Source: Lysobacter silvisoli (GTDB taxonomy: Bacteria > Pseudomonadota > Gammaproteobacteria > Xanthomonadales > Xanthomonadaceae). From it: 64,000 bases of DNA. The DNA lies in contig NZ_QTSU01000001.1 in the NCBI RefSeq assembly GCF_003382365.1, forward strand, positions 1,302,001 to 1,366,000, in the 5' to 3' direction. Positions 1 to 16,412 of this stretch are shown here, piece after piece (positions within the stretch are counted from its first letter, which is position 1; every line of letters starts with the position of its first letter). The notes under the pieces are model-generated. The model saw nothing but the letters and a program-made list of their open reading frames with translations, was not told the DNA's origin and searched no databases. The translations under genes were made by a program, and so were the position numbers.

Positions 1-884
1 ACGCGCATGATGCCCAGGTCGCGCCGGCGCTGGCGCACGCCCAGCGCCATGCCGCTGCTGACCATCAGCATCAGGGCGCAGAAGGTCACCACGACCACCA
101 TCTCGATCATCGACACGATGTCGCCGAACTGTGCGAAGAACTCGTTGTGGAACACCTGGTCGGAGCTGGTGTACGAAGGCCAGGCGCTGGTCTCCAGCGC
201 GGTGTCGATGCGCTGCGAGGCGTCGTCGGCGGTGACGTGCGGCTTGAGCGTGATCACGAAGCTGCCGACGGTGTCCTTCCAGATGTCGCGGTTCTCGTTG
301 AGGAAGTCGTAGTGGGTGACCGCGAAGTTGCGGCTGCCCGCGCCCTTGGTCGAATCGAAGATGCCGGCCACGATGTGATTCCAGGCGCGCTCGCCATGCG
401 GCGGCCGGAACAGCAGGCTCTGCAGCGGAATCGAGTCGCCCTTCTTCCAGCCGAACTTGTCGGCGATGTCGGCGCTGACCAGGATCGCGCGCTTGTCGGT
501 GAGGAAGGTCTTGCGGGTGTCGGCGTCCATGACCATGTCGGGATGGGTGTCCAGCCAGGTCTGCGGCTCCACCGCGAAGCTCATGAACATGTTCGACTGT
601 TCGCGGTAGTACAGGCCGATCCAGGTCGCGTAACTGATCGTCTCCAGCCCCTCGACCTTGCGGATGGTGTCGATCGACGACAGCGGCAGCACCTGCATCG
701 CGCCGGCGTCGCTCATCGCCATCAGCCGGCGCGAGGCGATGGAGTTGTCGCCGCCGTTCATGGAATAGCGCAAGGCGCCGAGGATGCCGAAAGTGCAAAA
801 CGCCAGGGCGACGGCCGCGGTCAGCAACAGCGAGCGCAGCTTGAAAAACCTGTGGTACCGCCAGATGAGGTTCAACTCGTTCAT
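1..884 (-). CDS. ABC transporter permease, FtsX/MacB type (3' end outside window)
   Basis: The first 294 codons of a minus-strand gene are open from ATG at 884 to the window edge. The protein begins MNELNLIWRYHRFFKLRS and has a transmembrane helix at about residues 17-37. A MacB-like periplasmic domain follows (about 40-240, with stretches such as SIASRRLMAMSDAGAM and ILVSADIADKFGWKKGD). A second hydrophobic helix starts near residue 258 and leads into GVRQRRRDLGIMR, typical of FtsX-family permeases. Its ATG overlaps the stop of the upstream SpaB_C gene (ATGA), so it belongs to the RiPP operon. FtsX/MacB permeases work with an ATPase in peptide efflux or envelope resistance, so export of or self-resistance to the product is the likely role. 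A cognate ATPase may lie beyond the left edge. Confidence 0.85.
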   Translation of the reverse strand, partial: MNELNLIWRYHRFFKLRSLLLTAAVALAFCTFGILGALRYSMNGGDNSIASRRLMAMSDAGAMQVLPLSSIDTIRKVEGLETISYATWIGLYYREQSNMFMSFAVEPQTWLDTHPDMVMDADTRKTFLTDKRAILVSADIADKFGWKKGDSIPLQSLLFRPPHGERAWNHIVAGIFDSTKGAGSRNFAVTHYDFLNENRDIWKDTVGSFVITLKPHVTADDASQRIDTALETSAWPSYTSSDQVFHNEFFAQFGDIVSMIEMVVVVTFCALMLMVSSGMALGVRQRRRDLGIMR

Positions 885-1852
885 GCCACCGTGTCCTGTT
901 GCTGCAAAGCGTTAGCGGCACCGCCGAGGATGCGCGCCAGTAGTAGCTCACCTGCCGCCGGCAGGCCCAGGCGGTTGTTCAACATGTGCATCTGCGAGCC
1001 GACGATGCCGAGCACGGCGTTGCGGCACATCGCATCGCCGACGGTCGCGCGGCCGTCGTAGGGCGCCAGCAGCCGCCCTTGCGCATGCAATTCCCTCAGG
1101 TGCAGCGCCAGCTTCTGCACGCCGCGTGCCCAGACCGCATGCGCGCTGCGGCTGTCCCAGCCCGCCGCCGCTTCCCGCTCCAGGCGCAGCAACAGTTGCA
1201 GTTGTTCATCGCTGGCGCGCGGCGCGTCCGCTTCCAGCGCCTCGCGGCCGACCATCGGCGTCCACAGCGCGCCATAGCGCTCGAAATAGCCGCCCAGCGC
1301 CGCCAGATCTTCGCCGCAGGCCAGCACCGCCGCGGCCATCAGCGCGAAGGCCGCCGACAGGCGCGCGCTGCGGCTGCCTTGCGTGGCCTTACACAGGCTC
1401 AGCGCCAGCCGCGAGGACAGCTCGAACAGCCCCTCGTTGGCGGCCATGGCCTGCTCGCCGCCGTAGCGCAGCCATTCGGGCTCGTAGGCGATGGCCGCCA
1501 CGGTGCCCTCGGCGTACCAGGGCAGGTCCTCCGGCGCCACCGGGCGGCCGTCGAAGGCGTGTCCGCGGTAGTACTCCTCGCGTGTGGGGGGCCGGGCCGA
1601 CAGATAAGGCTCGACGCCCTCGGCCAGCACCGCCCGGGCCGCGGCCTCGTCGGCCGCGATCGGGCCGGCCAGACGCACGCGCAGGTGCGGCCCGCCTTCC
1701 CAGTAGCGGATGAAGAACCATTGCCGCAGCGCACCGTCGGCGCTCCAGCGCTGGATCGCCGGCGCCAGGCGCTCGTGCAGATAGCGCTCGCTGGCGACCG
1801 GGTCGGACAGGAACACATGCAGCGAGAGCCAATCGCGCGGCGCGGCGTCCAT
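881..1852 (-). CDS. Stand-alone SpaB_C / thiopeptide-type biosynthesis protein, candidate pyridine-forming enzyme
   Basis: Protein of 323 residues. It starts MDAAPRDWLSLHVFLSDP and contains WFFIRYWEGGPHLRVRLAG, the characteristic N-terminal part of the 'thiopeptide-type bacteriocin biosynthesis' (SpaB C-terminal-like) domain, which fills the whole protein. In thiopeptide pathways the free-standing member of this family (TclM/TbtD type) performs the formal [4+2] cycloaddition between two dehydroalanines, forming the six-membered nitrogen ring and releasing the leader. In lanthipeptide LanB proteins the same fold eliminates glutamate from glutamylated Ser/Thr. The preceding dehydratase already has its own C-terminal domain, so I favour the cyclase role, by inference. 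The ATG overlaps the preceding stop by one base (TGATG at 1850-1854), and the stop overlaps the next ATG. Confidence 0.8.
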   Translation of the reverse strand: MDAAPRDWLSLHVFLSDPVASERYLHERLAPAIQRWSADGALRQWFFIRYWEGGPHLRVRLAGPIAADEAAARAVLAEGVEPYLSARPPTREEYYRGHAFDGRPVAPEDLPWYAEGTVAAIAYEPEWLRYGGEQAMAANEGLFELSSRLALSLCKATQGSRSARLSAAFALMAAAVLACGEDLAALGGYFERYGALWTPMVGREALEADAPRASDEQLQLLLRLEREAAAGWDSRSAHAVWARGVQKLALHLRELHAQGRLLAPYDGRATVGDAMCRNAVLGIVGSQMHMLNNRLGLPAAGELLLARILGGAANALQQQDTVA

Positions 1853-3327
1853 CAGCACAGCTCCATGGTCGGATTGGCCGAGCGCGAGTGCCCGCACAGC
1901 ACCAGGTAGACGGCCTGGCCGCGTAGCGCGAGCTCGGACTCCAGCCGGGCCTCGCGCATCATCTTGGTCGGCCGCGCATACAGGTCGTGGGCGGCGGCGG
2001 CCAGCGAAAAATCCTGCGCCGTCGCTCCGGCGGCCAGGTGGATCTCGCGCAGCGCGGCATCGCCCAGCCGTTCCATCGCCGCGCGCACGTCGGCCTGCAC
2101 GATCAGCACCGCCGTCAAGGTGGCGAAGTTGTACTTGGTGTTGGCGTACGGAAGCATGCGCACCACCGCTTCGCGCAGGTCGCCGCGCCAGGCTTGCGGC
2201 GCCGGCGCGTCGGCATCGATGTCGAGGACGCCCGGCGGCCGACCCGGCTCCTGCCCCAGCCACAGCAGGGAATGGGCCAGCTCAGCGGCCGCGGCGCTGG
2301 ACGGACGCCTGCGGCGGATGGCGCTCCAGGTCGCGATCACCGAAGCGCAGGTGCCGGCGGGCACTTGGGTCAGCACCGAGGACGCCAGGCCGCGATCGTT
2401 GCCGGAACTGCGCCGGCGCATCACGCCCAGCACCCCGCGCCCGCCGACGTCGCCGCGGCGCGCCGCACTCAAGCCCGGGACGGCCGACGCGGCCACGCGC
2501 GCGGGTGTGGCGCCACGGTCGAAGCTGCGCTGGAACAGCCGCAGCCGCGGGAATCGCTGCTCCATCTCCGGGTAGGGCCGCGGCGCGCTGAGACGGGGGT
2601 GTTCGGCCGGCAAGTCTTCGGGCTCGAAGCCCGGGCGCAAGCCGATGGCATACAGCGGAATTTCGAACGGCTGCGAGCACAAGGGCCGGCCGGTCTCGCG
2701 ATCCGGATCGGCGGTTTCGTCGATGCCGAGCAGTTGGGCCAGATGCTGGGCTTGCGCCTGCGCATGACCCGCCTCGAGCACGCAGGGCACATGCGCGAAC
2801 TCGCCGTACTCCTCGGCGTAGCGCCAGGCCCGGCCCACGCACACCAGCGCCGCGGTCCCCTCGCCCATCGCCCCCGCGGCCAGCGGCGGCAGCGCTTGCA
2901 GGCCATGGAACTCGGGCACGTAGGCATGCACCTGCGTGGTTCCGCCGCGGCTGCGCAGCAGGTAGTACTTGAGCGGATAGCGGCCGCGCGAGGACGGCAC
3001 GGCCTTGTGGATCGCCGACTCGCTGTAGGGCTCGTAGCGCAGCGGAGCGGCCAGATAGCGGAAGAACAGCGACCAGCGGACCGGCTCGTCCAGCGCCGGC
3101 ATGCCCGCGCGCGAGCCCGACAGCCACGCATCCAGGTCGCACAGCTCGCGCGGCAGGCCGGCCGAGGGCAGCAGGCGCAGGCTCGCCGGTTCGACCGCGC
3201 TGGCCTGGCGCCGCAACGCTTTCTTGCCCTCGGCGAAGGCCGGCACGATCAGGCGCTCCAAGCGCTGGTGGCCCGAGAGCAACCAGGCTTCCAGCTGATC
3301 CGCGCGTGCCGGGTCGGGAGCGGTCAT
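1852..3327 (-). CDS. Tandem SagB/nitroreductase-type azoline dehydrogenase
   Basis: Protein of 491 residues. SagB-type FMN enzymes oxidise thiazolines/oxazolines to thiazoles/oxazoles in azole-containing RiPPs. Two nitroreductase-like halves are visible. The first (about 55-190) has SSRGRYPLKYYLLRSRGG and VHAYVPEFHGLQAL, which match the SAGALYPLE...HYD region of SagB proteins. The second (about 290-490) begins RRRSSGNDRG and ends with AGATAQDFSLAAAAHDLYA and AVYLVLCGHSRSANP, the usual SagB C-terminal pattern. Thiopeptide and TOMM clusters commonly carry such double-length forms. The start at 3327 overlaps the YcaO stop (ATGA). A second, single-domain SagB protein is encoded at 13589-14464, so one of the two may act on another residue or step. 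Confidence 0.82.
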   Translation of the reverse strand: MTAPDPARADQLEAWLLSGHQRLERLIVPAFAEGKKALRRQASAVEPASLRLLPSAGLPRELCDLDAWLSGSRAGMPALDEPVRWSLFFRYLAAPLRYEPYSESAIHKAVPSSRGRYPLKYYLLRSRGGTTQVHAYVPEFHGLQALPPLAAGAMGEGTAALVCVGRAWRYAEEYGEFAHVPCVLEAGHAQAQAQHLAQLLGIDETADPDRETGRPLCSQPFEIPLYAIGLRPGFEPEDLPAEHPRLSAPRPYPEMEQRFPRLRLFQRSFDRGATPARVAASAVPGLSAARRGDVGGRGVLGVMRRRSSGNDRGLASSVLTQVPAGTCASVIATWSAIRRRRPSSAAAAELAHSLLWLGQEPGRPPGVLDIDADAPAPQAWRGDLREAVVRMLPYANTKYNFATLTAVLIVQADVRAAMERLGDAALREIHLAAGATAQDFSLAAAAHDLYARPTKMMREARLESELALRGQAVYLVLCGHSRSANPTMELC

Positions 3328-5321
3328 GGGAAGTTGTGCGGATAGGGGTTGACGTTGGCCAGCGTGTACGCCGGGGCGGCGATGCCGCGATGGCGGGCGA
3401 ACCGGTCCAGGCGGTCGGTGTCGATGCGCCGGTACTGGTGCCCGAAGGTCACCGGCATCAGGCCCGGCACCAGCACCTTGGCCGCGCTCAACCCCAGTTC
3501 GCGCAATTCGGCGAAGGTCTGGTCCACCACGATGATGTCGGTGGCGATCCCCAGCACCTTGGCGCAGTCCTCTTCCAGCTCCCGGGTTAGGTCCAGATGC
3601 CGCACGTCGGGCAGGCGCTCGCGGCATTCCTGCAAGGTCCGGACCTCGCCTTGGAGCAGGAACAGCAGCCGCTCCAAGGTTTCGTCCAGGCTGTACAGCA
3701 GCACGTGGTCGAACATGTCCTTGACCAGCGCATGGTCTTCGTACATGGCCCGCGCTCGGGCGAAATCCAGGGTCTCGCTCTTGCGGTACACGCCCATCGA
3801 GGTGGTGACTTCGGCCAGCGCGGAGAAGATCGTGTCGCTCCAGCGCCCGCCGCAGGCCGAGGCGCAGTAGGACTTGACCTTGGCGTCGCTGGACGGGTCC
3901 ACGATCATGGCGCCGACCACCGGGATCTGCGCCTCGCTGGTCATGTCGAACAGGTAGACCTCGAAGCCGGCGGCTTCGGAACGGGCGATCAGGGCGGCGC
4001 TGTGGCGGTCGTCGATGCTGCGGTTGTCGATCCGCGCCGGCGCGATCCGCGAATACCAGGTCGAGAAATAGGCGTCGCGCTCGATCACTTCGTGCAGCCC
4101 GCCCAATACCGCTTCCTCGATGCTGCCGCCCAGCGAGCAGCCGTTGGACGAGTCGTAGATGAAGCGGTTGGCCGGCACGCCCGGCCGGCTCTTGATGTTG
4201 TAGTAGCCCAGTTGCTCGGGCACCAGGATGGGCTCGTCGCGACGTAGCGAATGCCCCCAGACCCAGCCGAACTCCAGGTCTTCGGTATAGGTTTCGAAGC
4301 GGAACAAGGGGTTCGCGCGCTGCTCGTCGGTGTGCATCACGAACACCGCCGGATCGACCACGCGGTCGCCGTAGCGCGCGACCATCTGCGCGCGGCTGCC
4401 GCGCAAGGCGACCATGCCGTCGCGCGGCTCGTTGCCGGCGTAGCGCTCCACGCCTTCCAGCAATGCGATCAGCTCGGAAGTCTGGTAGTTGAAGGCGCGG
4501 CCATGGTTGTAATCGGTGGAGCCGCCGCCCGGGAACGGCCGCTCCGAGGTGAACAGCGGCATCAGGTCGGATTGCCAGTTCTGGAACACGTGCTTGATCA
4601 GCCCGCAATGGCGATCCAGGAACATCCGCCGCACGCTGCGCAGCGACAGCTTGTCGTTGGGCGGCCGCCGGTCGCTCGGGTCGAGCTTGATCCGCGACTG
4701 GAACCGCAGCGCCGCCGGTTGCGACGGCGCCGGCCGGATATCGCAGGCCGGGCACTGGCTGACCTGCATATAGCGGTGCCGCGCGATCTCCAGCGCGTCC
4801 ACGCGCAGCGTGTAGTAGTGGCCCGGCGGCAATGCGCTGTCCTGCTGGCCCAGGTCCGCGCCGGCCAGCGACGCCATCAGCTCGGCGACGGCGATGCGCG
4901 CGGCGGGCGACAGCGGCTTGAACGGCGTGGGACGGCGGCCCGACCGCTCGGCCGTATAGGTCTTGCCGGTGGGGTGATTGGTGCGGATCCATTCCTGCAG
5001 GCACTGCAGGCAACGGCCCTGGCCGGGCACGACCACCGGCCCGATCTGCACGGACCCCGGCTCCACGCCGACGAAGAACACCGTGACCCCGGCTTGGACC
5101 AGGCGCCGTTGCAGGTCGATCGCCGACAGCAGATCCAGCCTCTGGTCGAACAGCAGCAGGCATTGGCTGCCCGGCTCGGCTTCGAAATGCTCGGCCCGGG
5201 CCAGATCGGCGAACGCTTCGACGTTCGCGTCCCACAGGCGCGCCACCGCAGCCGGGCCGCCGAGCACGTCCAGGCAGGCCGGATTGGCGACCACATAGCG
5301 ACGGCTGCGGTCGCCGCTCAT
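3324..5321 (-). CDS. TOMM cyclodehydratase: E1-like zinc domain fused to YcaO domain
   Basis: Protein of 665 residues. The N-terminal 230 residues are a reduced E1/C-protein-like domain with two CxxC pairs, C104/C107 (RCLQC) and C190/C193 (QCPAC), that probably hold a structural zinc. The rest is a YcaO domain, recognised by SSNGCSLGGSIEEAVLGGLH followed by EVIERDA, which contains ATP-binding residues of the family. The protein ends PYPHNFP, a variant of the proline-rich C-terminus found in azoline-forming YcaO proteins. YcaO enzymes use ATP to cyclise Cys (or Ser/Thr) onto the preceding amide, here presumably the core cysteines. Fused C-D proteins of this type need a separate ocin-ThiF-like partner to bind the leader; that gene is immediately upstream. 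The ATG at 5321 overlaps the upstream stop. Confidence 0.93.
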   Translation of the reverse strand: MSGDRSRRYVVANPACLDVLGGPAAVARLWDANVEAFADLARAEHFEAEPGSQCLLLFDQRLDLLSAIDLQRRLVQAGVTVFFVGVEPGSVQIGPVVVPGQGRCLQCLQEWIRTNHPTGKTYTAERSGRRPTPFKPLSPAARIAVAELMASLAGADLGQQDSALPPGHYYTLRVDALEIARHRYMQVSQCPACDIRPAPSQPAALRFQSRIKLDPSDRRPPNDKLSLRSVRRMFLDRHCGLIKHVFQNWQSDLMPLFTSERPFPGGGSTDYNHGRAFNYQTSELIALLEGVERYAGNEPRDGMVALRGSRAQMVARYGDRVVDPAVFVMHTDEQRANPLFRFETYTEDLEFGWVWGHSLRRDEPILVPEQLGYYNIKSRPGVPANRFIYDSSNGCSLGGSIEEAVLGGLHEVIERDAYFSTWYSRIAPARIDNRSIDDRHSAALIARSEAAGFEVYLFDMTSEAQIPVVGAMIVDPSSDAKVKSYCASACGGRWSDTIFSALAEVTTSMGVYRKSETLDFARARAMYEDHALVKDMFDHVLLYSLDETLERLLFLLQGEVRTLQECRERLPDVRHLDLTRELEEDCAKVLGIATDIIVVDQTFAELRELGLSAAKVLVPGLMPVTFGHQYRRIDTDRLDRFARHRGIAAPAYTLANVNPYPHNFP

Positions 5322-7129
5322 GCCGCACCCGCCGCGGCGGTCAGGCTGGCATGACCGCAATACACGCCGGGCGGTAGTCCCGGTGCGGCGAACAGGTGGA
5401 AATCGGCCTGCCGCGGCGCGGCGGCCTGCGCCGCGATCAGGGCCGTGCGCCAGTCCGGCACCTGCGTCGCGGCGGCCGGCTCGGGCAGCGCCAGCGGCGG
5501 ATCGAAGCGGTCGCCGTGCAGGCCCTGCAATTGGAACAGGCTGCACGCCTTGCCCAGCGCAAGCTCCACCGCGCCCAGCGGGCTGTCGGCGACCGCGCTG
5601 CACAACGCGGTGTGCTCGTGCGACACGCGGGCGATGAAGGCGTCGCCGGCCGAATTCCACTGCAAGCGCAGGCCGATGCCGTCGGGCGCATGGAAGCGCA
5701 GCAAGGCATGCAGCACGCGCGCCGGGCCGGGCGGCAACTGGGCCAGATCAACCCAGGCCCATTGCTGGGTTCGCGCCATCTCTTCCGAGACCGCGACCGC
5801 CTGGGCGAGCGCGAGACGTTTCCATGCGTCCTCTTCGAAGGCGCAGACCGGCGCCGGCAGGTCCGGCTGGAAGCTGTGCGCCAGCGCGGCGACCGCCTGG
5901 GACAGGCCGTGGACGACAGCGGCCGCATGCTCCAGGCCCCAGCCCACGACGATGCGCTCGCGCCCGGCTTCGGACGCCGAGCGCACGCGCACCGGGTACT
6001 GCATCAACGGAACCTGCTCGATGCGGTCGTCGGCGACCACGCTGAACGGCCCCAGCAAGGGATCCAGCCACGGTTCCAGCGCGAACTTGACCCGCTCGAA
6101 CGGCAGCAGGGCGCGGCCTTCCGGCATCTGGTACTTGCTGGGGTGCACGAACGGAACCGGTGCGCCCTCGCCTCGCGCGGACGCCACCAGCATGCGGTAT
6201 TCGACTTCCAGATCCGCCGACACGATCGCGGCCTGACCGCCGGACGCGGCCGCCTCGATGCCGAAGTAGCGGCAGATCGCCGCCTGCGCGACCACACAGC
6301 CGAGCAAGGCCTTGGCCACGGAACCCAAGGTGGCCGAGTTCGGATCCGGCGGCGGCAACCAGTGCAGCAAATCCGCAATGCCGGGACGGCCGGCTTGCGA
6401 CGCCGGCGCCACCCAGGCGCGGCCGTCGACGATCGCGCCGATCGCGCCGGCGATGCCGCGCTCGCGCATCGTCCGCTCGACCTGGGCCGCCCTGGCCGTG
6501 ATCGCGCCATCGCCGATGTACAGCAGCATGCCGGCCGATTCGATGGGGCTGCCGTCGTCGATCGCCGCACGCAGGGCCAGCCGTGGACCTTGAGCGGACT
6601 CGATCTCGTCGCGCAGTTCGTCCCAGCCCGGGGTCGCCGCGCCATCGAACTGCACGCTCAGGTGGCCGCAGCCGCTGTCGGCCAGCGCCCTGACCGCCGA
6701 CAGCAGCGCCGGTCCGCCTCCGATCACGACCACCTGCGCGTCGCGCCAGCGGCGCAGCGCGGCTTCGACGCCCTGCCCCTGCAGCCGGTCTTCCAGGAAC
6801 TTGCGCAGTTCGTTGCTCGCGGTATGGGCCACGAGCCGGTCGGCCGACGGTTCCTCGGCCTCCACCGCCAGCAGCATGCCGTGCTCGCTCAGCGAGGCCA
6901 GCAACCGGCGGAAGAACTCGGCCAGCTTCGCCGGCGCGCGCTCCAGGATGCTCTCCACCGGATTGCCGGCGTCGATCAGCGCGATCAGCTTTTCGACCAG
7001 CGGATAGGCCGATGCGTCCTTCAGGACGAAGGAGCTATCGCCGGCGTCGAACAGGATGCCGTCGGGCACCAGGCCGAAATAGACATGGTTCTTGAGTTTG
7101 ACGCGGCTACCGGCAACGGTTTGATTCAT
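5318..7129 (-). CDS. Ocin-ThiF-like leader-binding protein (thiazole-containing bacteriocin maturation protein)
   Basis: Protein of 603 residues starting MNQTVAGSRVKLKNHVYFGL. The first 100 residues look like the RiPP-recognition region of 'F' proteins. A degenerate Rossmann segment follows (VVVIGGGPALLSAVRAL, residues 133-149), but no catalytic adenylation signature was seen. This is the pattern of the family annotated as putative thiazole-containing bacteriocin maturation protein. In thiopeptide and F-type azole pathways these proteins bind the leader peptide and activate the fused E1-like/YcaO enzyme encoded next. They are not known to be catalytic. The gene overlaps the LanB stop upstream and the YcaO start downstream, each by 4 nt, so coupled translation is likely. 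The family call is strong; the partner assignment is inferred from adjacency. Confidence 0.85.
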   Translation of the reverse strand: MNQTVAGSRVKLKNHVYFGLVPDGILFDAGDSSFVLKDASAYPLVEKLIALIDAGNPVESILERAPAKLAEFFRRLLASLSEHGMLLAVEAEEPSADRLVAHTASNELRKFLEDRLQGQGVEAALRRWRDAQVVVIGGGPALLSAVRALADSGCGHLSVQFDGAATPGWDELRDEIESAQGPRLALRAAIDDGSPIESAGMLLYIGDGAITARAAQVERTMRERGIAGAIGAIVDGRAWVAPASQAGRPGIADLLHWLPPPDPNSATLGSVAKALLGCVVAQAAICRYFGIEAAASGGQAAIVSADLEVEYRMLVASARGEGAPVPFVHPSKYQMPEGRALLPFERVKFALEPWLDPLLGPFSVVADDRIEQVPLMQYPVRVRSASEAGRERIVVGWGLEHAAAVVHGLSQAVAALAHSFQPDLPAPVCAFEEDAWKRLALAQAVAVSEEMARTQQWAWVDLAQLPPGPARVLHALLRFHAPDGIGLRLQWNSAGDAFIARVSHEHTALCSAVADSPLGAVELALGKACSLFQLQGLHGDRFDPPLALPEPAAATQVPDWRTALIAAQAAAPRQADFHLFAAPGLPPGVYCGHASLTAAAGAA

Positions 7130-10100: not shown

Positions 10101-10977
10101 AGTCCTTGCCCGCGCTGACGGTCTGCAGTTCCAGCTTGCCGTCGGCCTCGCGCACCGTCGGATTGAGCGCCAGCGGGAACGCCTGGGTCGCCTTGGCGTA
10201 ATCGCGCAGCCAGCTTTCGACGATGTGGCGCATCAGCGCGGCCTTGGCTTCGACCCGCCGTTCGATCCGGTTGGACAGCCGGCTCTCGCTCGCGCCCTCC
10301 TCGCCCTGCCAGTGCCCCACCCGGTTCAACGTCAGCGACGACAAGGGGCTGGTCTTGGTCGAGGCGCGGGCGAAGAACTGCAGCAGGGAGTCTTCCAGAT
10401 TGCGTGCGGTCTTGGCGTCCGTGGGCGCGGCGCCCTCGCCGTAGTGCTTGTGCAGGCGAGTCAGCAGCTTCTCGTTGTTGTAGCTCAGGGCGAGCTGGAG
10501 ATTCATCGACTCCAGCAGCAGGTGGATGGACTGGGCTCCGTCGGCCAATTCCCGATCGAAAGCCGCGGCGAACGCCTGTTGCGCCGTAGCCAGGGTGGCG
10601 TGGACGCCGTCCAGTTCGACGATGCGGGCGTACAGTTCGGCATCGGCGTACTTACCGCCCGCCTCCAGTTCGGAGGCCTTGGCCGGACGGCCGTTGTGCA
10701 GGGCGCGACGCAGTTCCAGCACCCGCCGCCGGTCGCCGACGTCGAGTACGCTGGGCACGACCAGCGCCAATCGGTCGCACACGTCGGGGGCCAGCGCAGC
10801 CGAACGCTCGCGCAGTTCGGTCAGCTGCGCCCAAGCCCGGTCGGATTCGCCCGTCCAGATCGCGTCCAGCTTGGACGCCGGCTCGCCGGCGACGCGCAGC
10901 ACGTAGTTCGGGTGCACCCACATGGCGGCGACGCCGGTGTCCGACCCGCCGATTGAGACCACTGCCCTGTCGTCCAT
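7126..10977 (-). CDS. LanB-type class I dehydratase with fused C-terminal elimination-like domain
   Basis: Protein of 1283 residues, longer than nisin-type LanB (about 1000). Residues 1-870 are the glutamylation part of class I dehydratases, including RASTKTSPLSSLTL, a strongly conserved LanB stretch, and YLYRTPYYENCYYA. Residues 883-1283 begin with THVSELHFEL and read as a SpaB_C-type domain, although this part is more divergent. The enzyme would glutamylate core Ser residues with Glu-tRNA and eliminate glutamate to give dehydroalanine. In Gram-positive thiopeptide clusters the two activities are usually on separate proteins; here they appear fused. The ATG at 10977 lies 8 nt after the ABC permease stop, with no obvious Shine-Dalgarno sequence. 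The stop overlaps the ocin-ThiF gene. Confidence 0.93.
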   Translation of the reverse strand: MDDRAVVSIGGSDTGVAAMWVHPNYVLRVAGEPASKLDAIWTGESDRAWAQLTELRERSAALAPDVCDRLALVVPSVLDVGDRRRVLELRRALHNGRPAKASELEAGGKYADAELYARIVELDGVHATLATAQQAFAAAFDRELADGAQSIHLLLESMNLQLALSYNNEKLLTRLHKHYGEGAAPTDAKTARNLEDSLLQFFARASTKTSPLSSLTLNRVGHWQGEEGASESRLSNRIERRVEAKAALMRHIVESWLRDYAKATQAFPLALNPTVREADGKLELQTVSAGKDFIGRIWGTGVDIAKFDANPVLACVRHALEESDDDSLPAQALVARICALAPKLPPPAVEGYVRKLYEIGYLVARTGLHEQTDTLEWIAGVEAALDDGTDDAFRTALARLRANLEVMRGDDLERRIQASRDIDPSIYYLATAAGARVGGYLYRTPYYENCYYAGDDADLSIGAIDAYREEFELIQQLNRVVDANYLVHTSLCDYFVSRFGEQGVCTDVQRFIEEFDAAYAPLVSEGKMDAEGVAASSPRTLALTRAKRAFEDHLRQQLGQGRDIRLEPEALRGIVSMLPPGMRNRRASYSYLVQPFKSDGGDGVVLNQIYGGRSGILSRFCEVLDDDGMARLRAYLGKGSESGRHAELGGVFGFNANRHPAMSGLELVVPPFAPSYPHTGKLALADLHLVYVPAEHRLEFRDRDGRAIDIWYHGLLTPVMLPAVQRTIALAFSEGPCFLAANALAKAKEASGSDVLYSPRIALGNVVISRRSWTLAYSTCPDPSMPAARFYLAIRDWQKAHGLPQRFFVRALLAGTGERARISRYSAMKEINFKDLKPFYVDLRNPRFVRLLQNMLKRHTLSLMVTELLPDFDDHASSVEGETHVSELHFELTSNLERPAPEARWHALRIAYFGDRGPLILGPVAEAIETAKRDFGVERAFFLPHWKFGPHIDLVLRCDSESYALRVLPAIQAIVERWIAEHPSQVRIDPEEYEKTSRWIGTFEIDSGPYLPLLKDNTVAPVPYLRPKTLLIPAVAESKELMLSDCAELILALYRLKDADRDAFFITLHSMLAATANTPKAGAKEGYMSMRSHADYFFAAYDTDNALRGRFDQVDAKHQARLDRATAAVVAGRYDETGLPAPFVRVLEDWVRALAEVDARSKRIVESHYQELVGQNDQFMDMATQMRQDVPDEFFQRIEQRQISEIGDAFINTKAGKEALQKPAFLAYRINVNFFYALLPLLEVAPIQKFLLCHVLSNSVERVFGQDWRQKVERIRAMESSSP

Positions 10978-10985
10978 GGCCGCCG

Positions 10986-11737
10986 TCAACGGTAGCTGTT
11001 GCGAAAGATCACCGCGGCGGCGAAGGCGCAGACCGCGCCGAACACCAGCAGCAGCGCGATCGGGAATACCGAAGCCCGGGTGAACAGCTCGTTCTCCCAG
11101 GCCAGCCGCGAGATCTGCACCGCGTAGGTGGTGGGCACGAAGTCGGACAGGGCCTGGGCCCACTGCGGGAACGCATCGCGCGACATGCCCGCCCCGGACA
11201 GGATCAGCAGCGGCTGCATGAACAGCATGCCGGCGGAAAAGGCCCGCTGCGGGGCCGGGAACAGCACGCCGATCAGGATGCCGGCCGGCAGCATCGCGAA
11301 GCCGATCACCAGCATGGGCAGCATCAACTGGATCGGATTGGCCTTGGGCCAGTAGCCGAACATCACCAGGCCCGCCAGCAGCATGACCACGTAGCCGATC
11401 GCGAACAGCAGCATCGCGCGCAGGCAGAAGCCGGCCCAGAGCTCGTACACCTTCACCGGCGTCACCATCAGCCGGTTGAGGAAGCCCATGTGCTTGGCCA
11501 TCGCCACCGACGGCGCGATGTTGAGGAACGAGATCAGCAGGATCAGCACCGCGGTGAAATTCGGGGTATTGGTGTTGTAGTACTTCAGCGACGCCGCTTC
11601 GGAGCCGATCGCGCCGGAGAACGAAGCGAAGAAAATGTAGAAGCCGACCGGGAACACCAGCAGGAAGAAGATCGCGGTCTTGTCGCGCAGGGTGCTTTTC
11701 ACGTCCAGCGCGGTCACGGCATAGATGTTGGCGACGT

Positions 11738-11741
<4 letters not shown>
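10986..11741 (-). CDS. ABC-2 type transporter permease of the RiPP cluster
   Basis: Protein of 251 residues with about six hydrophobic helices, in the ABC-2 layout: an N-terminal helix near residues 23-41 (AIFFLLVFPVGFYIFFASF), a large loop, then five helices. The last helices include LLLVFGAVCAFAAAVIF. ATG at 11741 overlaps the stop of the ATPase gene (ATGA), so the two subunits are translationally coupled. Together they form a two-component exporter or immunity transporter for the cluster product. ABC-2 transporters of this size export antibiotics, peptides and polysaccharides. There is no fused peptidase domain, so this exporter would not itself remove the leader. Confidence 0.88.
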
Positions 11742-12544
<803 letters not shown>

Positions 12545-12575
12545 GGATGGCTCCGCGATCTCGATCGGCTCAAGA

Positions 12576-12611
12576 CCGGACACATCGGCCGATAGGCACC
12601 GATGTGTCCGG
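12576..12611 (-). promoter_or_regulatory. Perfect 13-bp hairpin just upstream of the ABC ATPase gene
   Basis: CCGGACACATCGG (12576-12588) and CCGATGTGTCCGG (12599-12611) are exact inverted repeats around a 10-nt loop. No U-run follows on the minus strand, so it is not a classical intrinsic terminator. Its position between precursor and enzyme genes fits an RNA element that limits read-through or stabilises the upstream precursor transcript. Confidence 0.6.
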
Positions 12612-12637
12612 CCCACTGAACGGTGGAGTGCTGCGAT

Positions 12638-12659
12638 GCCGATTCGCGAACGAATCGGC
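12638..12659 (-). promoter_or_regulatory. Perfect 9-bp hairpin 23 nt after the precursor stop codon
   Basis: GCCGATTCG (12638-12646) and CGAATCGGC (12651-12659) pair perfectly; on the transcribed strand the loop reads UUCG. It begins 23 nt downstream of the precursor TAA and has no U-tract. It is likely a partial terminator or a 3'-end stabiliser, which would let precursor mRNA exceed enzyme mRNA. Confidence 0.6.
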
Positions 12660-12682
12660 GATCGTCAGCGCTTACCGGACAG

Positions 12683-12871
12683 TTACTCCACCGTCGCCAC
12701 GTCGTTGAAGCACGACGAGGAACCGCAGCTCGAGCACGAGCTACAGATGCTGACGGCGCTGGACGCGCCGGTTTCCGGCAGAGCCATCGCTTCCTTCAGG
12801 GTCACAACTTCCATGCCTTCGATGTTCAGGCTGGCCAGATCCAACGAGTCGAAATCGAAATCATTGTTCAT
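12683..12871 (-). CDS. Thiopeptide-type RiPP precursor peptide (62 aa)
   Basis: A short gene with a strong ribosome-binding site (AAGGAGA, 7 nt before ATG at 12871). The leader, about residues 1-36, is acidic and hydrophobic (DFDFDSLDLASLNIEGMEVV) and ends TLKEAMALPETGAS, which closely resembles leaders of actinobacterial thiazolylpeptide precursors. The core is Cys/Ser rich: cysteines at 43, 46, 49 and 54 and ten serines between 37 and 53, in the pattern SICSSCSSCGSSSC. It ends FNDVATVE, an unusually charged tail for a thiopeptide. The four Cys are candidate thiazoles and several Ser candidate dehydroalanines. Ser38/Ser47 and Ser41/Ser51-53 have the spacing (9-12 residues) of the Ser pairs joined in known thiopeptide macrocycles; the sequence alone cannot choose between them. 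Confidence 0.92.
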   Translation of the reverse strand: MNNDFDFDSLDLASLNIEGMEVVTLKEAMALPETGASSAVSICSSCSSCGSSSCFNDVATVE

Positions 12872-12914
12872 GACAACTTCTCCTTACGATTTATCCACTA
12901 CCATGTGGACATAC

Positions 12915-12939
12915 ATTGGGTGGAGTGGAGGCACCCAAT
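12915..12939 (-). promoter_or_regulatory. Inverted repeat upstream of the precursor gene (possible operator or leader hairpin)
   Basis: ATTGGGTG (12915-12922) and CACCCAAT (12932-12939) are exact inverted repeats with a 9-nt spacer, starting 44 nt upstream of the precursor ATG in a relatively A/T-rich 163-nt gap. I could not find a convincing -35/-10 pair. A precursor-specific promoter is nevertheless likely here, and this repeat could be its operator or a 5'-UTR hairpin. Confidence 0.35.
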
Positions 12940-13034
12940 TCCTTGACACGGTTCCTTGCGTGGTCAGCGCTTTCCATTCGGATCCTCGAGCCGGACGCGC
13001 ACGCACAGCGGCGGCATCGCGCTCTCGCGGCCCC

Positions 13035-13559
13035 TTAGATCGAGTAGCGTATTCGGACGCGAATCCGGGTCGCGCCATTCACCTTGATGCGGGATGCATC
13101 GAACTGCGGCGCGGCCTTGGCCAGGTTCGCGTTGTTGCTGAAGCCGATTCCTTCCGCGCCCAGCTCCAGGCGCGAATTGTCGTTCTCGTCGTGATAGAGC
13201 GCGAGCGCGTAGTCGCCTTGCGCCAGGCCCTTGAAGTCCAGCGACACCACGCCGTCGGCGGCCTTGGCGCGCGCGGTACGGGTGCAACCGGACGGGAACG
13301 CCTCGCCTTCCTTGCACAAGGTGCCGATGATGAAGCCGTGATCGCCGCGAACGCCGCTGACGTCCACGCGCAGCGCGTCGCCCTGCCCTGCCTGCGCCGC
13401 GAGCGGTGCCTTTGCGCCGCGCTCGCGCGCGTTGCGCGCCCCGTCTTCGGCGCCGCCCTTCGAGACCTGCCACGCTCCCCAGAGCACCGCGACCGCGACT
13501 ACCGCGCCGATCGCTCCCCGTGCGACTTGCGACCTCACATACGATTTGCCAGTTTCCAA
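13035..13559 (-). CDS. DUF2141 domain protein with N-terminal membrane anchor
   Basis: Protein of 174 residues. An N-terminal hydrophobic segment (about 15-31, AIGAVVAVAVLWGAWQV) precedes a periplasmic DUF2141 domain, recognised by LRVDVSGVRGDHG, ALALYHDENDN and GIGFSNNAN. The function of DUF2141 proteins is unknown. The start is uncertain: I used TTG at 13559, preceded by AGGGAAGTGA, but a GTG seven codons further in (about 13538) is possible. It sits between the second SagB-type gene (29 nt upstream) and the precursor (163 nt downstream), on the same strand. It may therefore be co-transcribed with the sulfur-carrier module, but nothing ties it functionally to peptide maturation. Confidence 0.75.
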   Translation of the reverse strand: METGKSYVRSQVARGAIGAVVAVAVLWGAWQVSKGGAEDGARNARERGAKAPLAAQAGQGDALRVDVSGVRGDHGFIIGTLCKEGEAFPSGCTRTARAKAADGVVSLDFKGLAQGDYALALYHDENDNSRLELGAEGIGFSNNANLAKAAPQFDASRIKVNGATRIRVRIRYSI

Positions 13560-13588
13560 GTCACTTCCCTATGTTGACCGGACGGGCT

Positions 13589-14464
13589 TCAGCTCGTCGC
13601 CTTCCCATGCGACGAACGCTTGCCCACTACGAACCCCAGCACCACGATCTCCCTGGCGCCGTCCGCCCCCACGTATGCCGCTACATCCCCATCGCAGAAT
13701 CCGCCCCAGACGCAGCCAGGCAAGCCGCGCGCCATCGCGGTCAGATGCAGGTTCTGGCTCAGCGCGCCGGCCTCGTTCATCACGAAGCGGTAGCCGCGAT
13801 CCAGGTACTTGGCCATCGAGCGCAACAGCACCGCGGTGACCACGAACACCACGCTGGCCTGTGCCTTGAACTCCGGCTGCAGGTCGAAGCCCGGCATCGC
13901 CGCGCGCGCGTCCTCGCGGCGCAGGCAGGACAGCGCATGGGCGACCGCGTCGTAGTGGTAGACGCCCGGCGCCAGGCCGGTCACGTCCATCACCACCGGA
14001 TAGATTTCCAGCGGGTACAGCGCGCCGGCCGACGGGCAGGCCCGTAGCCGCTGCACCGGGACCGTCTCGCCGAGGCGGCGTTCGCCCAGCACGCCGTAGG
14101 AATACTTGAGGATCGCGGCCAGATCGTCGACACCGACCGCACCGTCGCGCGGCGCAGCGTCGCTGGCCAGGGAACGCCGGCGCAGCAAGGCCTGCTGCAG
14201 CGTCAGCTCGCCCAGCTGCGCCTCCGGCAAGGCGATCGATTCGGCATCGCGATGTTCGTTGCGGCTGCGCGACACGATCTCGCGCAGCGCCGGCTCGCTG
14301 AGGAAGGCGCGGATGCGCGAGGACAAGCCGCGATCCAGCGTCCGGCCCCAGGTGGTGCGCGCATGGAAGGCATCGACGGCCGAGGTATCGTCGCCGGCGA
14401 ACAGCAGTTCGGTGCGGTCGCGGCGCACGCCGTTCGCGCCCGCTGCCCGGGTATCGGCTGGCAT
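13589..14464 (-). CDS. Single-domain SagB/ThcOx-type dehydrogenase
   Basis: Protein of 291 residues. SagB hallmarks are all present: LLRRRSLASD (phosphate-binding region), CPSAGALYPLEIYPVV, GLAPGVYHYDAVAHAL and NEAGALSQNLHLTAMARGL, ending with IVVLGFVVGKR. Members use FMN to oxidise azolines to azoles, or act as free-standing nitroreductase-like enzymes in other pathways. Start ATG at 14464 lies 13 nt after the stop of the E1-rhodanese gene; the frame is open further upstream but there overlaps that gene. Unlike the 491-residue tandem SagB at 1852-3327, this one keeps all the recognisable motifs in a single domain and may be the main catalyst of azoline oxidation. Confidence 0.88.
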   Translation of the reverse strand: MPADTRAAGANGVRRDRTELLFAGDDTSAVDAFHARTTWGRTLDRGLSSRIRAFLSEPALREIVSRSRNEHRDAESIALPEAQLGELTLQQALLRRRSLASDAAPRDGAVGVDDLAAILKYSYGVLGERRLGETVPVQRLRACPSAGALYPLEIYPVVMDVTGLAPGVYHYDAVAHALSCLRREDARAAMPGFDLQPEFKAQASVVFVVTAVLLRSMAKYLDRGYRFVMNEAGALSQNLHLTAMARGLPGCVWGGFCDGDVAAYVGADGAREIVVLGFVVGKRSSHGKATS

Positions 14465-14477
14465 CGTCGCGCTGGCC

Positions 14478-15665
14478 TCAGTAGACCGCATCGGTGCGCT
14501 CGATATCGCGGGTCCAGGCTTCGATGCCGCCGTCCAGGCTGGCCACGTCGCGGAAACCGCGCTCGGCCAGGAAGGCCGCGGCGCGCAGCGAGCGCACCCC
14601 CGACTTGCAGTAGCACACCACCGGCAGGTTCCGGTCCAAGGTGTGGAAGTGCTCCTCGATTTCATCCACCGGCATCAACAGCGAACCGTCGATGCGCACG
14701 ATCTGGTGCTCGTTGAGCGTGCGCACGTCGACCAGTTGCAGCGCATCCGCCTGCCCCAGACGCTGCTGCAGCCATTGCGCGCTGACCCGCTCGATCGGCG
14801 CGGCCTCCGCGTCGCCTGCGCCGTCGCCCAGGCCGGTGCCGCAGAACACCGCGTAGTCGACCAATCCGGTCTGGGTCGGGTAGTCGCCGCAGACGCAGCA
14901 GCCCGGATCGCGACGCAGTTCGAGTTCGCGGAAGCTCATCTCGGTGGCGTCGAAGCGCAGCAGCCGCCCCGCCATGGGCCGGCCGATCCCGGTAATGAGC
15001 TTGATCGTCTCCACCGCCTGCAGCAGGCCCATGGTCCCGGGCAGCACGCCGAACACCCCGCCCTCCGCGCACGAAGGCGCAAAGCCCGGCGGCGGCGGCT
15101 CCGGGTACAGGCAGCGGTAGCACGGGCCGTCGCCGAGGTTGAACACCGACAGCATGCCCTCGAAGCGGAACACCGAGGCGTAGACGTTGGGCTTGCCGCT
15201 GAGCACGCAGGCGTCGTTGATCAGGTAACGCGTGGCGAAGTTGTCGGTGCCGTCGACGACGATGTCGTAGTCGGCCAGCAGCGCCAGGGCGTTATCGGCC
15301 TCGATCCGGCAGCGGTGCTCGACGATCGTGATGTGCGGATTCATCGCCGCCAGGCGCGCGGCGGCGGCTTCGACCTTGGGCCGGCCCACGTCCTGCGCGG
15401 TGTACAGCACCTGGCGCTGCAGATTGCTCACGTCGACCGTGTCGTGTTCGACGATGCCGATCGTGCCCACGCCCGATGCCGCCAGGTACTGCGCGGTAGG
15501 CGAGCCCAGGCCGCCTGCGCCGACCAGCAGCACGCGCGCGGCCTTCAGCCTGCGCTGACCCTCGCTGCCGATCTCCGGAATGATGATGTGCCGGCTGTAG
15601 TGACGGATCTCGTCGCGCGAGAGTTCCGGGCCTGGCTTGAATTCGGGAGTCCTTTCCCTGTTCAT
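14478..15665 (-). CDS. MoeB/ThiF-type adenylyltransferase with C-terminal rhodanese domain
   Basis: Protein of 395 residues. The N-terminal E1-like domain has the nucleotide-binding GAGGLGS at 49-55, the DGTDNFATRYLIND segment, two Cys pairs (CYRC and CVC) for zinc, and CAEGGVFGVLPGTMG with the usual catalytic Cys region. Residues from about 285 form a rhodanese domain with active loop CKSGVRS. Such MoeZ/MoeB-R proteins adenylate the C-terminal GlyGly of a sulfur-carrier protein and transfer persulfide sulfur to make a thiocarboxylate. The carrier gene lies 3 nt upstream. The pair could serve molybdopterin or cysteine synthesis, but its place at the head of the RiPP genes suggests a dedicated sulfur supply. 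Confidence 0.9.
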   Translation of the reverse strand: MNRERTPEFKPGPELSRDEIRHYSRHIIIPEIGSEGQRRLKAARVLLVGAGGLGSPTAQYLAASGVGTIGIVEHDTVDVSNLQRQVLYTAQDVGRPKVEAAAARLAAMNPHITIVEHRCRIEADNALALLADYDIVVDGTDNFATRYLINDACVLSGKPNVYASVFRFEGMLSVFNLGDGPCYRCLYPEPPPPGFAPSCAEGGVFGVLPGTMGLLQAVETIKLITGIGRPMAGRLLRFDATEMSFRELELRRDPGCCVCGDYPTQTGLVDYAVFCGTGLGDGAGDAEAAPIERVSAQWLQQRLGQADALQLVDVRTLNEHQIVRIDGSLLMPVDEIEEHFHTLDRNLPVVCYCKSGVRSLRAAAFLAERGFRDVASLDGGIEAWTRDIERTDAVY

Positions 15666-15668
15666 CGC

Positions 15669-15989
15669 TTATCCCCCAGCGATCGCGGGCAGGATGGTGA
15701 TGACGTCCTGCGGGCGCAGCGGCGTTTGTTCCTGCTGCAGGAAGCGGATGTCCTTGGAGTTGAGGAAGACGTTGATGAAACGGCGCAGTTGCTGATCGCC
15801 GGCGAACATCTGCGTGCGCAGCAGCGGGTATTGGTCCGAGATCAATCGCAGGGCTTGTCCGACCGTTTCAGCCTGGACATCCACGGAGCCGGCCTGGCCG
15901 GTGAAACGTCGCAATCCCGATGGGATCAATACGACTACGTCCGCTAGCGAAGGCGCGCTTGCAGCGGCGCCATCTTCCTTGCGATCCAT
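15669..15989 (-). CDS. MoaD/ThiS family sulfur-carrier protein
   Basis: Protein of 106 residues with the ubiquitin-like fold of MoaD/ThiS/CysO and the diagnostic C-terminal Gly-Gly (ITILPAIAGG). After activation by the neighbouring E1-rhodanese it would carry sulfur as a terminal thiocarboxylate. The central FINVFLNSKDIRFLQQEQTP resembles CysO-type carriers (VFVNDEDIRFLDG-like), so an acceptor such as O-phosphoserine/cysteine synthase is conceivable; none is present in the window. It is the first gene of the minus-strand run that continues into the thiopeptide genes. Confidence 0.88.
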   Translation of the reverse strand: MDRKEDGAAASAPSLADVVVLIPSGLRRFTGQAGSVDVQAETVGQALRLISDQYPLLRTQMFAGDQQLRRFINVFLNSKDIRFLQQEQTPLRPQDVITILPAIAGG

Positions 15990-16412
15990 CCCCGTTCATC
16001 CTTGATGTGCATCCCCTTTTTTCACACTTGCATACCCAAATAGGAAAAGCAATAGCCCAAAGTAAGTCATACCAACGGACAAGAAATGCAAAGCATCGCG
16101 CGGAGATTTTCGTTAGCGAGCGCGCCATACACTCGCGCATTGGCTTGCGTTTTTCGCCTCCCGGTTCGCGGGTAAAGCAGCGGTTTTTCAGTGCGATGGA
16201 CGCGATTTCTTAAAGCCCGTACGAGCGTGAATGCAGCGCCAACGCAACACGAATGCATTCTCCCCCATACGCAGCAGTACATCGGCGGCGAACGGAGCGA
16301 TGCGCCCGACGAACGGTGCGCGGGCGCAGTGCGGTTCCCGTCGTGCCATCGCTTTGCTTAACTGTTGCGTTGCAGCAGCACGAACGATCGGAATTCAACG
16401 TCAGGAAGGGTC
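15990..16412. other. Intergenic region, divergent promoters expected
   Basis: A 423-nt gap between the minus-strand sulfur-carrier gene and the plus-strand DUF7010-like gene. It is clearly richer in A/T than its surroundings, mainly at 16010-16220. Short open frames here show no family features and I leave them uncalled. It must contain the promoter of the first gene of the RiPP-side run, but I could not place -35/-10 boxes with confidence. Confidence 0.5.

What the first reader, a model, noticed from the sequence alone, without database searches (positions are those of the whole stretch)
1..15989. A thiopeptide-type RiPP cluster in a gammaproteobacterium
Seen: precursor with ALPETGAS leader end and a Cys/Ser core, LanB-type dehydratase, ocin-ThiF-like protein, fused E1-like/YcaO, SagB-type dehydrogenases, a stand-alone SpaB_C protein, ABC exporter and FtsX permease, all on one strand. 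Known: this set (TclI/J/K-L/M/N equivalents) defines thiopeptide/pyritide pathways, mostly described from Gram-positive bacteria. Inference: the host makes a thiazole- and dehydroalanine-containing, probably macrocyclic peptide. A Xanthomonadaceae source, the fused dehydratase and the partner genes make it likely to be undescribed.
Basis: partly seen in the sequence, partly recalled or inferred. Interest (0 to 1): 0.92.

Follow-up and report, generated by a model that had tools for sequence, protein, structure and literature searches.

The report
Predicted thioamidated thiopeptide gene cluster
A Gram-negative bacterium carries what looks like a full gene set for a thiopeptide-type peptide, with two of its enzymes fused into one and a probable private sulfur-delivery line for swapping oxygen for sulfur in the peptide backbone; relatives of the set lie in several other Gram-negative bacteria.

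Summary
One minus-strand run of genes encodes a 62-aa thiopeptide-type precursor and recognisable equivalents of the six thiomuracin-type enzymes TbtB to TbtG (E and F only by weak matches). The "LanB" is a TbtB-TbtD fusion. The stand-alone SpaB_C protein looks like the elimination partner (TbtC-like), not the pyridine synthase. The run continues about 6 kb past the window edge with MacB-type export genes and a thioamide-type YcaO next to TfuA. At the other end lie ThiS, ending in -GG, and a MoeZ-type E1-rhodanese. Best reading: an azole- and Dha-containing, pyridine-closed, thioamidated thiopeptide, with sulfur passing rhodanese, E1, ThiS-COSH, TfuA, YcaO. Seven other fetched genomes hold the core set; TfuA is in six of them. 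TbtB and TbtD are separate genes in two of the eight. In five, ThiS is fused ahead of rhodanese and E1, so its GG is internal, and all five carry a JAMM peptidase right there. The two Lysobacters, with free ThiS-GG, have none there. Thioamidated thiopeptide-like clusters in Proteobacteria were already flagged in print (PMC8120280), so this is a new variant of a known kind. Product, ring size and activity are untested.

The parts
15669..15989 (-). ThiS/MoaD-like sulfur-carrier protein, ends ...LPAIAGG (free GG)
   Evidence: PF02597 5e-12; C-terminus read
14478..15665 (-). MoeZ-type protein: ThiF/E1 adenylating domain plus C-terminal rhodanese
   Evidence: PF00899 1.1e-83, PF00581 1.4e-18; MoeZ/MoeB models
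13589..14464 (-). SagB-type FMN peptide dehydrogenase 1 (in the fetched stretches found only in the two Lysobacters)
   Evidence: TIGR03605 132.7 bits, cut-off 78.4; start chosen; loci
13035..13559 (-). DUF2141 protein with an N-terminal hydrophobic stretch (start codon uncertain); linked to the cluster in 8 of 8 genomes; role unknown
   Evidence: PF09912 3.6e-20
12683..12871 (-). Thiopeptide precursor, 62 aa; leader ends ALPETGA, core SSAVSICSSCSSCGSSSCFNDVATVE
   Evidence: NF033400 49.6 bits, cut-off 30; leave-window-out HMM E 5.9e-32
11738..12544 (-). ABC transporter ATPase (DrrA-like)
   Evidence: PF00005; start chosen
10986..11741 (-). ABC-2 type permease partner (export or self-protection, inferred)
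   Evidence: PF01061 8.1e-17; start chosen
7126..10977 (-). TbtB-TbtD fusion, 1283 aa: glutamylating LanB N-terminal domain plus [4+2] pyridine-synthase-like C-terminal domain
   Evidence: PF04738; NF045556 199.8 bits, below its cut-off of 325; 6ec7 1.7e-35 and TbtD 1.9e-29 with profile A1
5318..7129 (-). ocin-ThiF-like partner with N-terminal RRE-like stretch (TbtF-like)
   Evidence: TIGR03693 weak, 20.6 bits; PbtF chain 8t19 E 0.0049 with profile A4
3324..5321 (-). E1-like/YcaO cyclodehydratase (TbtG-like)
   Evidence: TIGR03604 272.6 bits and TIGR03882 71.1 bits, both over cut-off
1852..3327 (-). SagB-like FMN dehydrogenase 2 (TbtE-like), divergent
   Evidence: PF00881 and TIGR03605 weak, under cut-off; nitroreductase 3eo7 E 2.5e-9 with profile A3
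881..1852 (-). Stand-alone SpaB_C elimination protein (TbtC-like)
   Evidence: PF14028 1.9e-40, TIGR03891 103 bits, cut-off 48.45; 5ehk and NisB C-terminal domains; invariant RYGG and HMxNNRL in 7 of 7 aligned
1..884 (-). MacB/FtsX-type permease 1 (gene runs on past the window edge); beyond it in L003: permease 2, HlyD adaptor, LolD-type ATPase, thioamide-type YcaO (L003 14666-13332), TfuA (about L003 13332-11950)
   Evidence: PF02687/PF12704; outer genes; L003 base 18001 = window base 1

Best explanation
This is a biosynthetic cluster for a thiopeptide that also carries a backbone thioamide. Inferred order: the ocin-ThiF/RRE protein binds the leader. The E1-YcaO enzyme cyclises Cys (and perhaps some Ser/Thr), and the SagB-type enzymes oxidise the rings to azoles. 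The LanB half of the fusion glutamylates Ser, and the stand-alone SpaB_C removes glutamate to give Dha. The TbtD half joins two Dha residues into a six-membered nitrogen ring and expels the leader. By the leader-core register I predict Ser1 plus Ser11 (Cys10 before it), a 29-membered ring as I recall for thiomuracin. A second YcaO with TfuA installs the thioamide. Its sulfur comes from a dedicated relay: rhodanese to E1 to ThiS thiocarboxylate to TfuA (hydrolysis) to YcaO. In relatives where ThiS is made as the front part of a ThiS-rhodanese-E1 protein, a JAMM peptidase should first cut behind the GG. The product leaves through the MacB-type pump, whose outer-membrane partner would be encoded elsewhere. 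Shown: gene content, homology, domain boundaries, conservation and co-occurrence. Inferred: every reaction, ring size, thioamide site, export and bioactivity.
For: Precursor family with leader ...ALPETGA and ten core positions (S1, S2, S5, S9, C10, S11, C13, G14, S15, S17) identical in 9 of 9 precursors from 8 genomes. NF033400 is passed by the window precursor and by 8 of 9 scanned from other loci; Sphingomonas misses by 0.3 bit. Fusion halves match 6ec7 and TbtD/PbtD, and the halves are separate adjacent genes in Teredinibacter and Alteromonas. SpaB_C aligns with 5ehk and NisB at WFFIRY...HLRLR and YxPExxRYGG. The second YcaO's best model is the McrA thioglycine one (233.3 bits, below its cut-off of 365), and TfuA matches solved TfuA 6xp8 at 3.6e-28. 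TfuA is found in 7 of the 8 genomes, and all 7 also have ThiS, E1 and rhodanese in the cluster stretches (in Massilia on a second contig that carries the exporter end). Alteromonas has no TfuA and no ThiS/E1 in the stretches fetched. JAMM genes lie next to, or within, the fused ThiS gene in 5 of 5; in the two Lysobacter genomes and Alteromonas none passes the Pfam cut-off, and tblastn finds none in their fetched stretches. PMC8153245 and PMC13063428 (passages) tell of TfuA hydrolysing thiocarboxylated ThiS to feed YcaO; PMC9576775 (passage) says ThiF and ThiS homologues sometimes go with YcaO-TfuA in RiPP clusters; PMC9247985 (passage) gives leader loss with ring closure.
Against: The pyridine-synthase model is below its equivalog cut-off (199.8 of 325), as are the thioamide YcaO (233.3 of 365) and TfuA (153 of 235.2) models. 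The HMxNNRL stretch of SpaB_C aligns with 5ehk and NisB only at 0.3 and 2.6 bits. Core position 2 is Ser, not the Cys that I recall as usual after the first Ser of thiopeptides, so the Ser1-Ser11 register is a guess. Alteromonas a30 keeps the same core without TfuA, so the thioamide is not essential to the family. The Lysobacter E1 is no closer to the fused E1s (54-63%) than to the genome's own housekeeping MoeB (57%), so the Lysobacter relay is probably a separate recruitment. The two Lysobacters count as one event. ThiS-rhodanese-E1 proteins are common and not special to this cluster (113 of the 120 listed). JAMM genes over cut-off also occur away from clusters (a second one in Aquimonas, one in Sphingomonas). 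No product is known.
Confidence: 0.74

Rival explanations
1. A linear azole- and Dha-containing peptide (goadsporin-like): the C-terminal half of the fusion is only an elimination-type or accessory domain and no pyridine ring is made.
For: PF14028 covers both SpaB_C and the fusion's C-terminal half; the TbtD model is below its curated cut-off; the goadsporin biosynthetic protein 9jhq also matches the N-terminal half.
Against: The C-terminal half matches solved TbtD and PbtD and brings up no NisB or 5ehk at the thresholds used, it is a separate TbtD-sized gene in two relatives, and the elimination role is already filled by SpaB_C. The precursor matches thiopeptide models.
Confidence: 0.12
2. 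Thiopeptide, but the ThiS/MoeZ and YcaO-TfuA genes serve something else (another protein substrate or cofactor synthesis) and merely sit in the operon.
For: A YcaO enzyme thioamidates the ribosomal protein uL16 in Pseudomonadota (PMC13063428, passages); Alteromonas has the core genes without TfuA.
Against: [quoted passage not shown] In 7 of 8 genomes both YcaO-TfuA and ThiS, E1 and rhodanese lie with this cluster. The genome's other ThiS matches over cut-off lie outside the cluster, the strongest at C1:378657 and C1:2434704.
Confidence: 0.12
3. A pyritide (pyridine-closed peptide without azoles).
For: TbtD-like synthase and LanB pair present; Ser-rich core.
Against: A TOMM-type E1-YcaO and a SagB dehydrogenase are present, both over cut-off, with an RRE-like partner and Cys10 and Cys13 invariant in 9 of 9 precursors.
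Confidence: 0.02

Closest known systems
Thiomuracin/GE37468-type thiopeptide pathway (tbt/pbt)
   Same: Precursor register GA|S1...C10-S11 (TbtA core recalled) and equivalents of TbtB, C, D, E, F, G
   Different: TbtB and TbtD fused; Ser at core position 2; extra core and tail after S11; MacB-type export genes; YcaO-TfuA and ThiS relay added; 26.6 bits with the thiomuracin precursor model, cut-off 29
Thioamidated thiopeptides (thiopeptin, saalfelduracin, Sch 18640; named in PMC8120280, section 13)
   Same: Thiopeptide set plus TfuA-YcaO
   Different: No sequence of those clusters was compared here; PMC8120280 says the TfuA-YcaO thioamidated RiPPs then known came from Actinobacteria (passage)
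Proteobacterial TfuA-linked thiopeptide-like clusters of PMC8120280 (Rhizobium, Herbaspirillum and others)
   Same: Thiopeptide-type precursor plus TfuA-YcaO in Proteobacteria; ThiS annotated in a figure legend
   Different: The paper's main text does not contain the word Lysobacter; supplements could not be read, so overlap with this family is open; the JAMM link and the TbtB-TbtD fusion are not in the two sections read
JAB/ThiS/E1-rhodanese sulfur-transfer operons (PDTC, quinolobactin; Iyer et al. 2006, PMC1779556, passages)
   Same: Same four functions; that paper suggested JAB may free ThiS or MoaD where it is fused to other proteins
   Different: Here the relay sits with TfuA-YcaO and a thiopeptide instead of siderophore genes

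Membership tests
Thiopeptide (RiPP class) | Cys/Ser/Thr-rich core behind a thiopeptide-type leader | tested here: met
   NF033400 over cut-off; 8 of 9 relatives over it
Thiopeptide (RiPP class) | YcaO cyclodehydratase with ocin-ThiF/RRE partner and azoline dehydrogenase | tested here: met
   TIGR03604 and TIGR03605 (SagB1) over cut-off; ocin-ThiF and SagB2 only by weak profile and chain matches
Thiopeptide (RiPP class) | Split LanB: glutamylating domain and separate eliminating domain | tested here: met
   6ec7 match for the first; 5ehk and NisB C-terminal domain matches for the second
Thiopeptide (RiPP class) | [4+2] pyridine synthase (TbtD/PbtD/TclM) | tested here: inconclusive
   Clear homology to TbtD/PbtD, but 199.8 bits against the NF045556 equivalog cut-off of 325
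Thiopeptide (RiPP class) | Six-membered nitrogen heterocycle in the product | not testable with these tools
   Needs the product
TfuA-YcaO thioamidated RiPP | Adjacent TfuA and thioamide-type YcaO | tested here: met
   PF07812 3.8e-44, 6xp8 3.6e-28; YcaO best model McrA-type, 233.3 bits, below its cut-off of 365
TfuA-YcaO thioamidated RiPP | Thioamide in the product | not testable with these tools
   Needs MS
Pyritide | No azole-forming enzymes | tested here: not met
   E1-YcaO and SagB1 over cut-off
Class I lanthipeptide | LanC cyclase with full-length LanB | tested here: not met
   No LanC family in the Pfam and NCBIfam answers for the cluster proteins scanned; the LanB C-terminal half matches TbtD instead of NisB

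The most novel reading that the evidence does not exclude
A Gram-negative clade of thioamidated thiopeptides carries its own sulfur factory. In most members it is made as one protein, with a ubiquitin-like carrier fused to rhodanese and E1 (and, in Teredinibacter, JAMM too), which the JAMM peptidase must cut to expose the carrier's GG before it can be thiocarboxylated and drained by TfuA. In Lysobacter this has been replaced by an independently recruited free ThiS plus MoeZ, without a JAMM. Glutamylation and pyridine closure are yoked in one TbtB-TbtD polypeptide.
Probability: 0.5. Interest if true: 0.74.

Novelty: new variant of a known kind. Interest (0 to 1): 0.62.

Why it matters
Thiopeptides are best known from Gram-positive bacteria (recalled). 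A conserved Gram-negative family with its own export genes raises the question of how such peptides leave, and spare, a cell with an outer membrane. The linked ThiS relay makes testable a question left open in PMC8153245 (passage read): whether bacterial RiPP TfuA proteins drain ThiS thiocarboxylate as the archaeal one does. The TbtB-TbtD fusion offers one polypeptide in which to study the order of dehydration and ring closure.

Tried and rejected
EF-Tu-based self-resistance: the genome has two full EF-Tu genes with the same score. The one aligned (L060) looks ordinary and keeps Gly at the two sites that I recall for GE2270 resistance. No other resistance gene was looked for, so export is only the default guess. 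A shared origin of the Lysobacter E1-rhodanese with the fused relays was considered and not supported. Defence-type E1 systems: MoeZ matches PADLOC E1-E2 models in part of the E1 domain, and ThiS, the E1-YcaO and the fusion match none. The promoter and terminator scan of 12400-16500 was uninformative (one promoter-like site, on the other strand; three terminator-like sites against 2.4 expected). Breadth: the fusion profile finds 4 of 395 genomes of the family, the window's own counted and one of the others weak with an internal stop, and only the window's own of 369 drawn from the class, so the trait is patchy. In the tree the three split rows group together, but with weak support (53/58) and long branches, so a single fusion event is allowed, not shown. 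Structure prediction and fold search were not run.
Full report
WHAT IS THERE. The window is bases 1302001-1366000 of contig 1 of a 4.54-Mb genome. Handle G015, listed in the same genus as the window's genome, has its fusion gene at the same place and with the same identity (73.4%) as the record of Lysobacter sp. cf310 (L005, L015), so I take the host to be a Lysobacter. The finding's genes are all present on the minus strand. Gap sizes are 3, 13 and 29 bases from ThiS to the DUF2141 gene, 163 and 138 around the precursor, and then overlaps of 1-4 bases apart from one 8-base gap. The run goes on to the left of the window (L003): a second MacB-type permease, HlyD adaptor, LolD-type ATPase, a second YcaO and TfuA. 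Beyond TfuA comes a convergent gene that looks by eye like a secreted trypsin-like protease (no family search run), which I take as the border. The YcaO search of the genome gave two matches, both here.

PRECURSOR. The 62-aa peptide at 12871-12683 ends in core SSAVSICSSCSSCGSSSCFNDVATVE. NF033400 gives 49.6 bits (cut-off 30), the thiomuracin/GE37468 model 26.6 (cut-off 29), TIGR03892 19.6 (cut-off 25). An HMM from eight precursors of seven other loci finds only this one among 871 frames of the window. Across the nine precursors ten core positions are invariant: S1, S2, S5, S9, C10, S11, C13, G14, S15, S17. A search of the large protein set gave 30 candidates, 30 of 30 at E up to 0.001 and all with PF19409 precomputed; seven bear a source's name with "thiazolylpeptide-type bacteriocin", Bowmanella and Sandaracinobacteroides among them. 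The core register GA|S1...C10-S11 is the one I recall for thiomuracin TbtA, whose ring closes between S1 and S11. That analogy is recalled, and position 2 differs.

ENZYMES. The 1283-aa protein is a fusion. As a 19-row profile its N-terminal part matches solved 6ec7 (1.7e-35; TbtB by recall) and the goadsporin protein 9jhq (1e-29), and its C-terminal part matches TbtD 5wa3 (1.9e-29) and PbtD 5w98 (7.9e-25). NF045556 gives 199.8 bits, under its cut-off of 325, so I call it TbtD-like. In Teredinibacter waterburyi and Alteromonas a30 the two halves are separate neighbouring genes (L009 9986-12694 and 12715-13875; L010 9941-12652 and 12661-13818). In the other six of eight genomes they are fused. 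The stand-alone SpaB_C, as a 7-row profile, matches 5ehk (9.3e-12; MibB by recall), TsrE 7cww (2e-11), NisB (2.9e-9) and 9g04 (1e-6), and less well TbtD (3.5e-4) and PbtD (1.3e-3). It aligns well at the WFFIRY...HLRLR and YxPExxRYGG stretches and only weakly (0.3 and 2.6 bits) at HMxNNRL. So elimination most likely is the separate protein and ring closure rides on the glutamylating enzyme. The ocin-ThiF-like protein has an N-terminal stretch matching the PbtF chain 8t19 (E 0.0049). The E1-YcaO passes TIGR03604 and TIGR03882, and SagB1 passes TIGR03605. SagB2 is a weak match.

THIOAMIDE AND SULFUR. The second YcaO fits the McrA-glycine thioamidation model best (233.3 bits, cut-off 365) and TfuA fits its partner model at 153 bits (cut-off 235.2), both under those equivalog cut-offs. 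PF07812 is 3.8e-44, and solved TfuA 6xp8 is matched at 3.6e-28. At the other end of the run lie ThiS, ending ...LPAIAGG, and MoeZ (E1 then rhodanese). PMC8153245 (passages) says the archaeal TfuA hydrolyses thiocarboxylated ThiS to supply its YcaO and that the bacterial RiPP case remains to be determined. PMC13063428 (passages) says thioamide-forming YcaO enzymes outside sulfide-rich settings tend to use a thiocarboxylated ThiS homologue and TfuA. PMC9576775 (passage) says YcaO-TfuA in RiPPs sometimes work with ThiF and ThiS homologues, so that link is known. PMC5589413 (passages) notes rhodanese-domain genes near ycaO-tfuA.

COMPARATIVE ANATOMY. Eight genomes hold the core set in the same order: the window, Lysobacter cf310, Massilia arenosa, Glaciecola MH2013, Bowmanella dokdonensis, Aquimonas voraii, Teredinibacter waterburyi and Alteromonas a30. 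In Massilia the first contig ends inside SagB2 and a second one starts in HlyD, so SpaB_C and the permeases were not seen there. Sphingomonas, Metabacillus and Aliibacillus hits (L011-L013) lie on short contigs and were left out of these counts. TfuA is in 7 of the 8 (handles G067 and G399 give the same place and are counted once), not in Alteromonas. In Glaciecola, Bowmanella, Aquimonas, Massilia and Teredinibacter the ThiS domain is fused ahead of rhodanese and E1 in one frame, with the GG internal (Pfam check of four of these frames, Aquimonas not scanned). In all five a JAMM gene with the HSHP...D motif lies directly before it, and in Teredinibacter it is part of the same frame. In the two Lysobacters ThiS is free and ends in GG. 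Their only JAMM matches are one sub-cut-off hit each, on another contig, and tblastn finds none in their fetched stretches. Alteromonas has no TfuA and no JAMM match in the genome, and no ThiS/E1 in the stretches fetched. JAMM genes over cut-off also occur away from clusters, a second one in Aquimonas and one in Sphingomonas. The pattern is what one expects if JAMM is needed to free the carrier; Iyer et al. [quoted passage not shown] The two Lysobacters are close kin and count as one event. E1 identity is 54-63% between Lysobacter and the fused E1s and 57% with the genome's housekeeping MoeB, which argues for separate recruitment in Lysobacter. ThiS-rhodanese-E1 proteins are common: of the 120 best rows listed for the Glaciecola protein, 113 have all three domains and 14 of the 120 also a JAB domain (7994 of 7999 scored candidates pass 1e-60, but only 120 are listed and their neighbours were not seen).

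DISTRIBUTION. 4 of 395 genomes drawn from the family match the fusion profile: the window's own, two others, and one weak match with an internal stop. Of 369 drawn from the class only the own genome matches. The set is rare and patchy, as for a mobile pathway; transfer is an inference.

LITERATURE. Ten searches used. PMC8120280 (sections 12 and 13 read, other passages) reports thiopeptide-like precursors in TfuA clusters of Proteobacteria and putative thiopeptide clusters mostly with an extra C-terminal dehydratase domain. PMC7329324 (passages) counted thiopeptide clusters among shipworm symbionts, Teredinibacter waterburyi Bs02 being one of the strains; which strain has which cluster was not in the passages. 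So the general kind is known; I saw no account of this family's fusion or JAMM link in those searches. Most subscription papers, the Schwalen 2018 survey among them, could not be read.

VERDICT. A real, intact-looking thiopeptide cluster with a thioamide branch; a new variant of a known kind. How it works is inferred from homology and co-occurrence; nothing biochemical has been shown.

Noticed in passing
window 13035-13559: A DUF2141 protein is linked to the cluster in 8 of 8 genomes, even where it has moved (beside YcaO-TfuA in Teredinibacter L009, after the exporter in Alteromonas L052); its role in the pathway is unknown.
   Followed up: partly
L032 12416-14401 (-): Teredinibacter waterburyi encodes JAMM, ThiS-like, rhodanese and E1 domains in one open frame; 14 of the 120 proteins listed have that make-up, one named as from a Planctomycetota bacterium.
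   Followed up: partly
L010 7196-7417 and 7773-7991: Alteromonas a30 has two different precursors of the family in front of one enzyme set, without a TfuA match in the genome.
   Followed up: partly
L011 425-580: Sphingomonas oligophenolica carries a shorter precursor (AIPETGASCCYGSSSCSGS...) beside split TbtB- and TbtD-like genes on a 6.7-kb contig.
   Followed up: no
L003 10264-11772 (+): A gene that looks by eye like a secreted trypsin-like protease lies convergent to TfuA at the end of the cluster; probably unrelated.
   Followed up: no
window 40913-41095 (-): A second, weak ThiS-family match (26.9 bits, over the Pfam cut-off) inside the window, away from the cluster.
   Followed up: no
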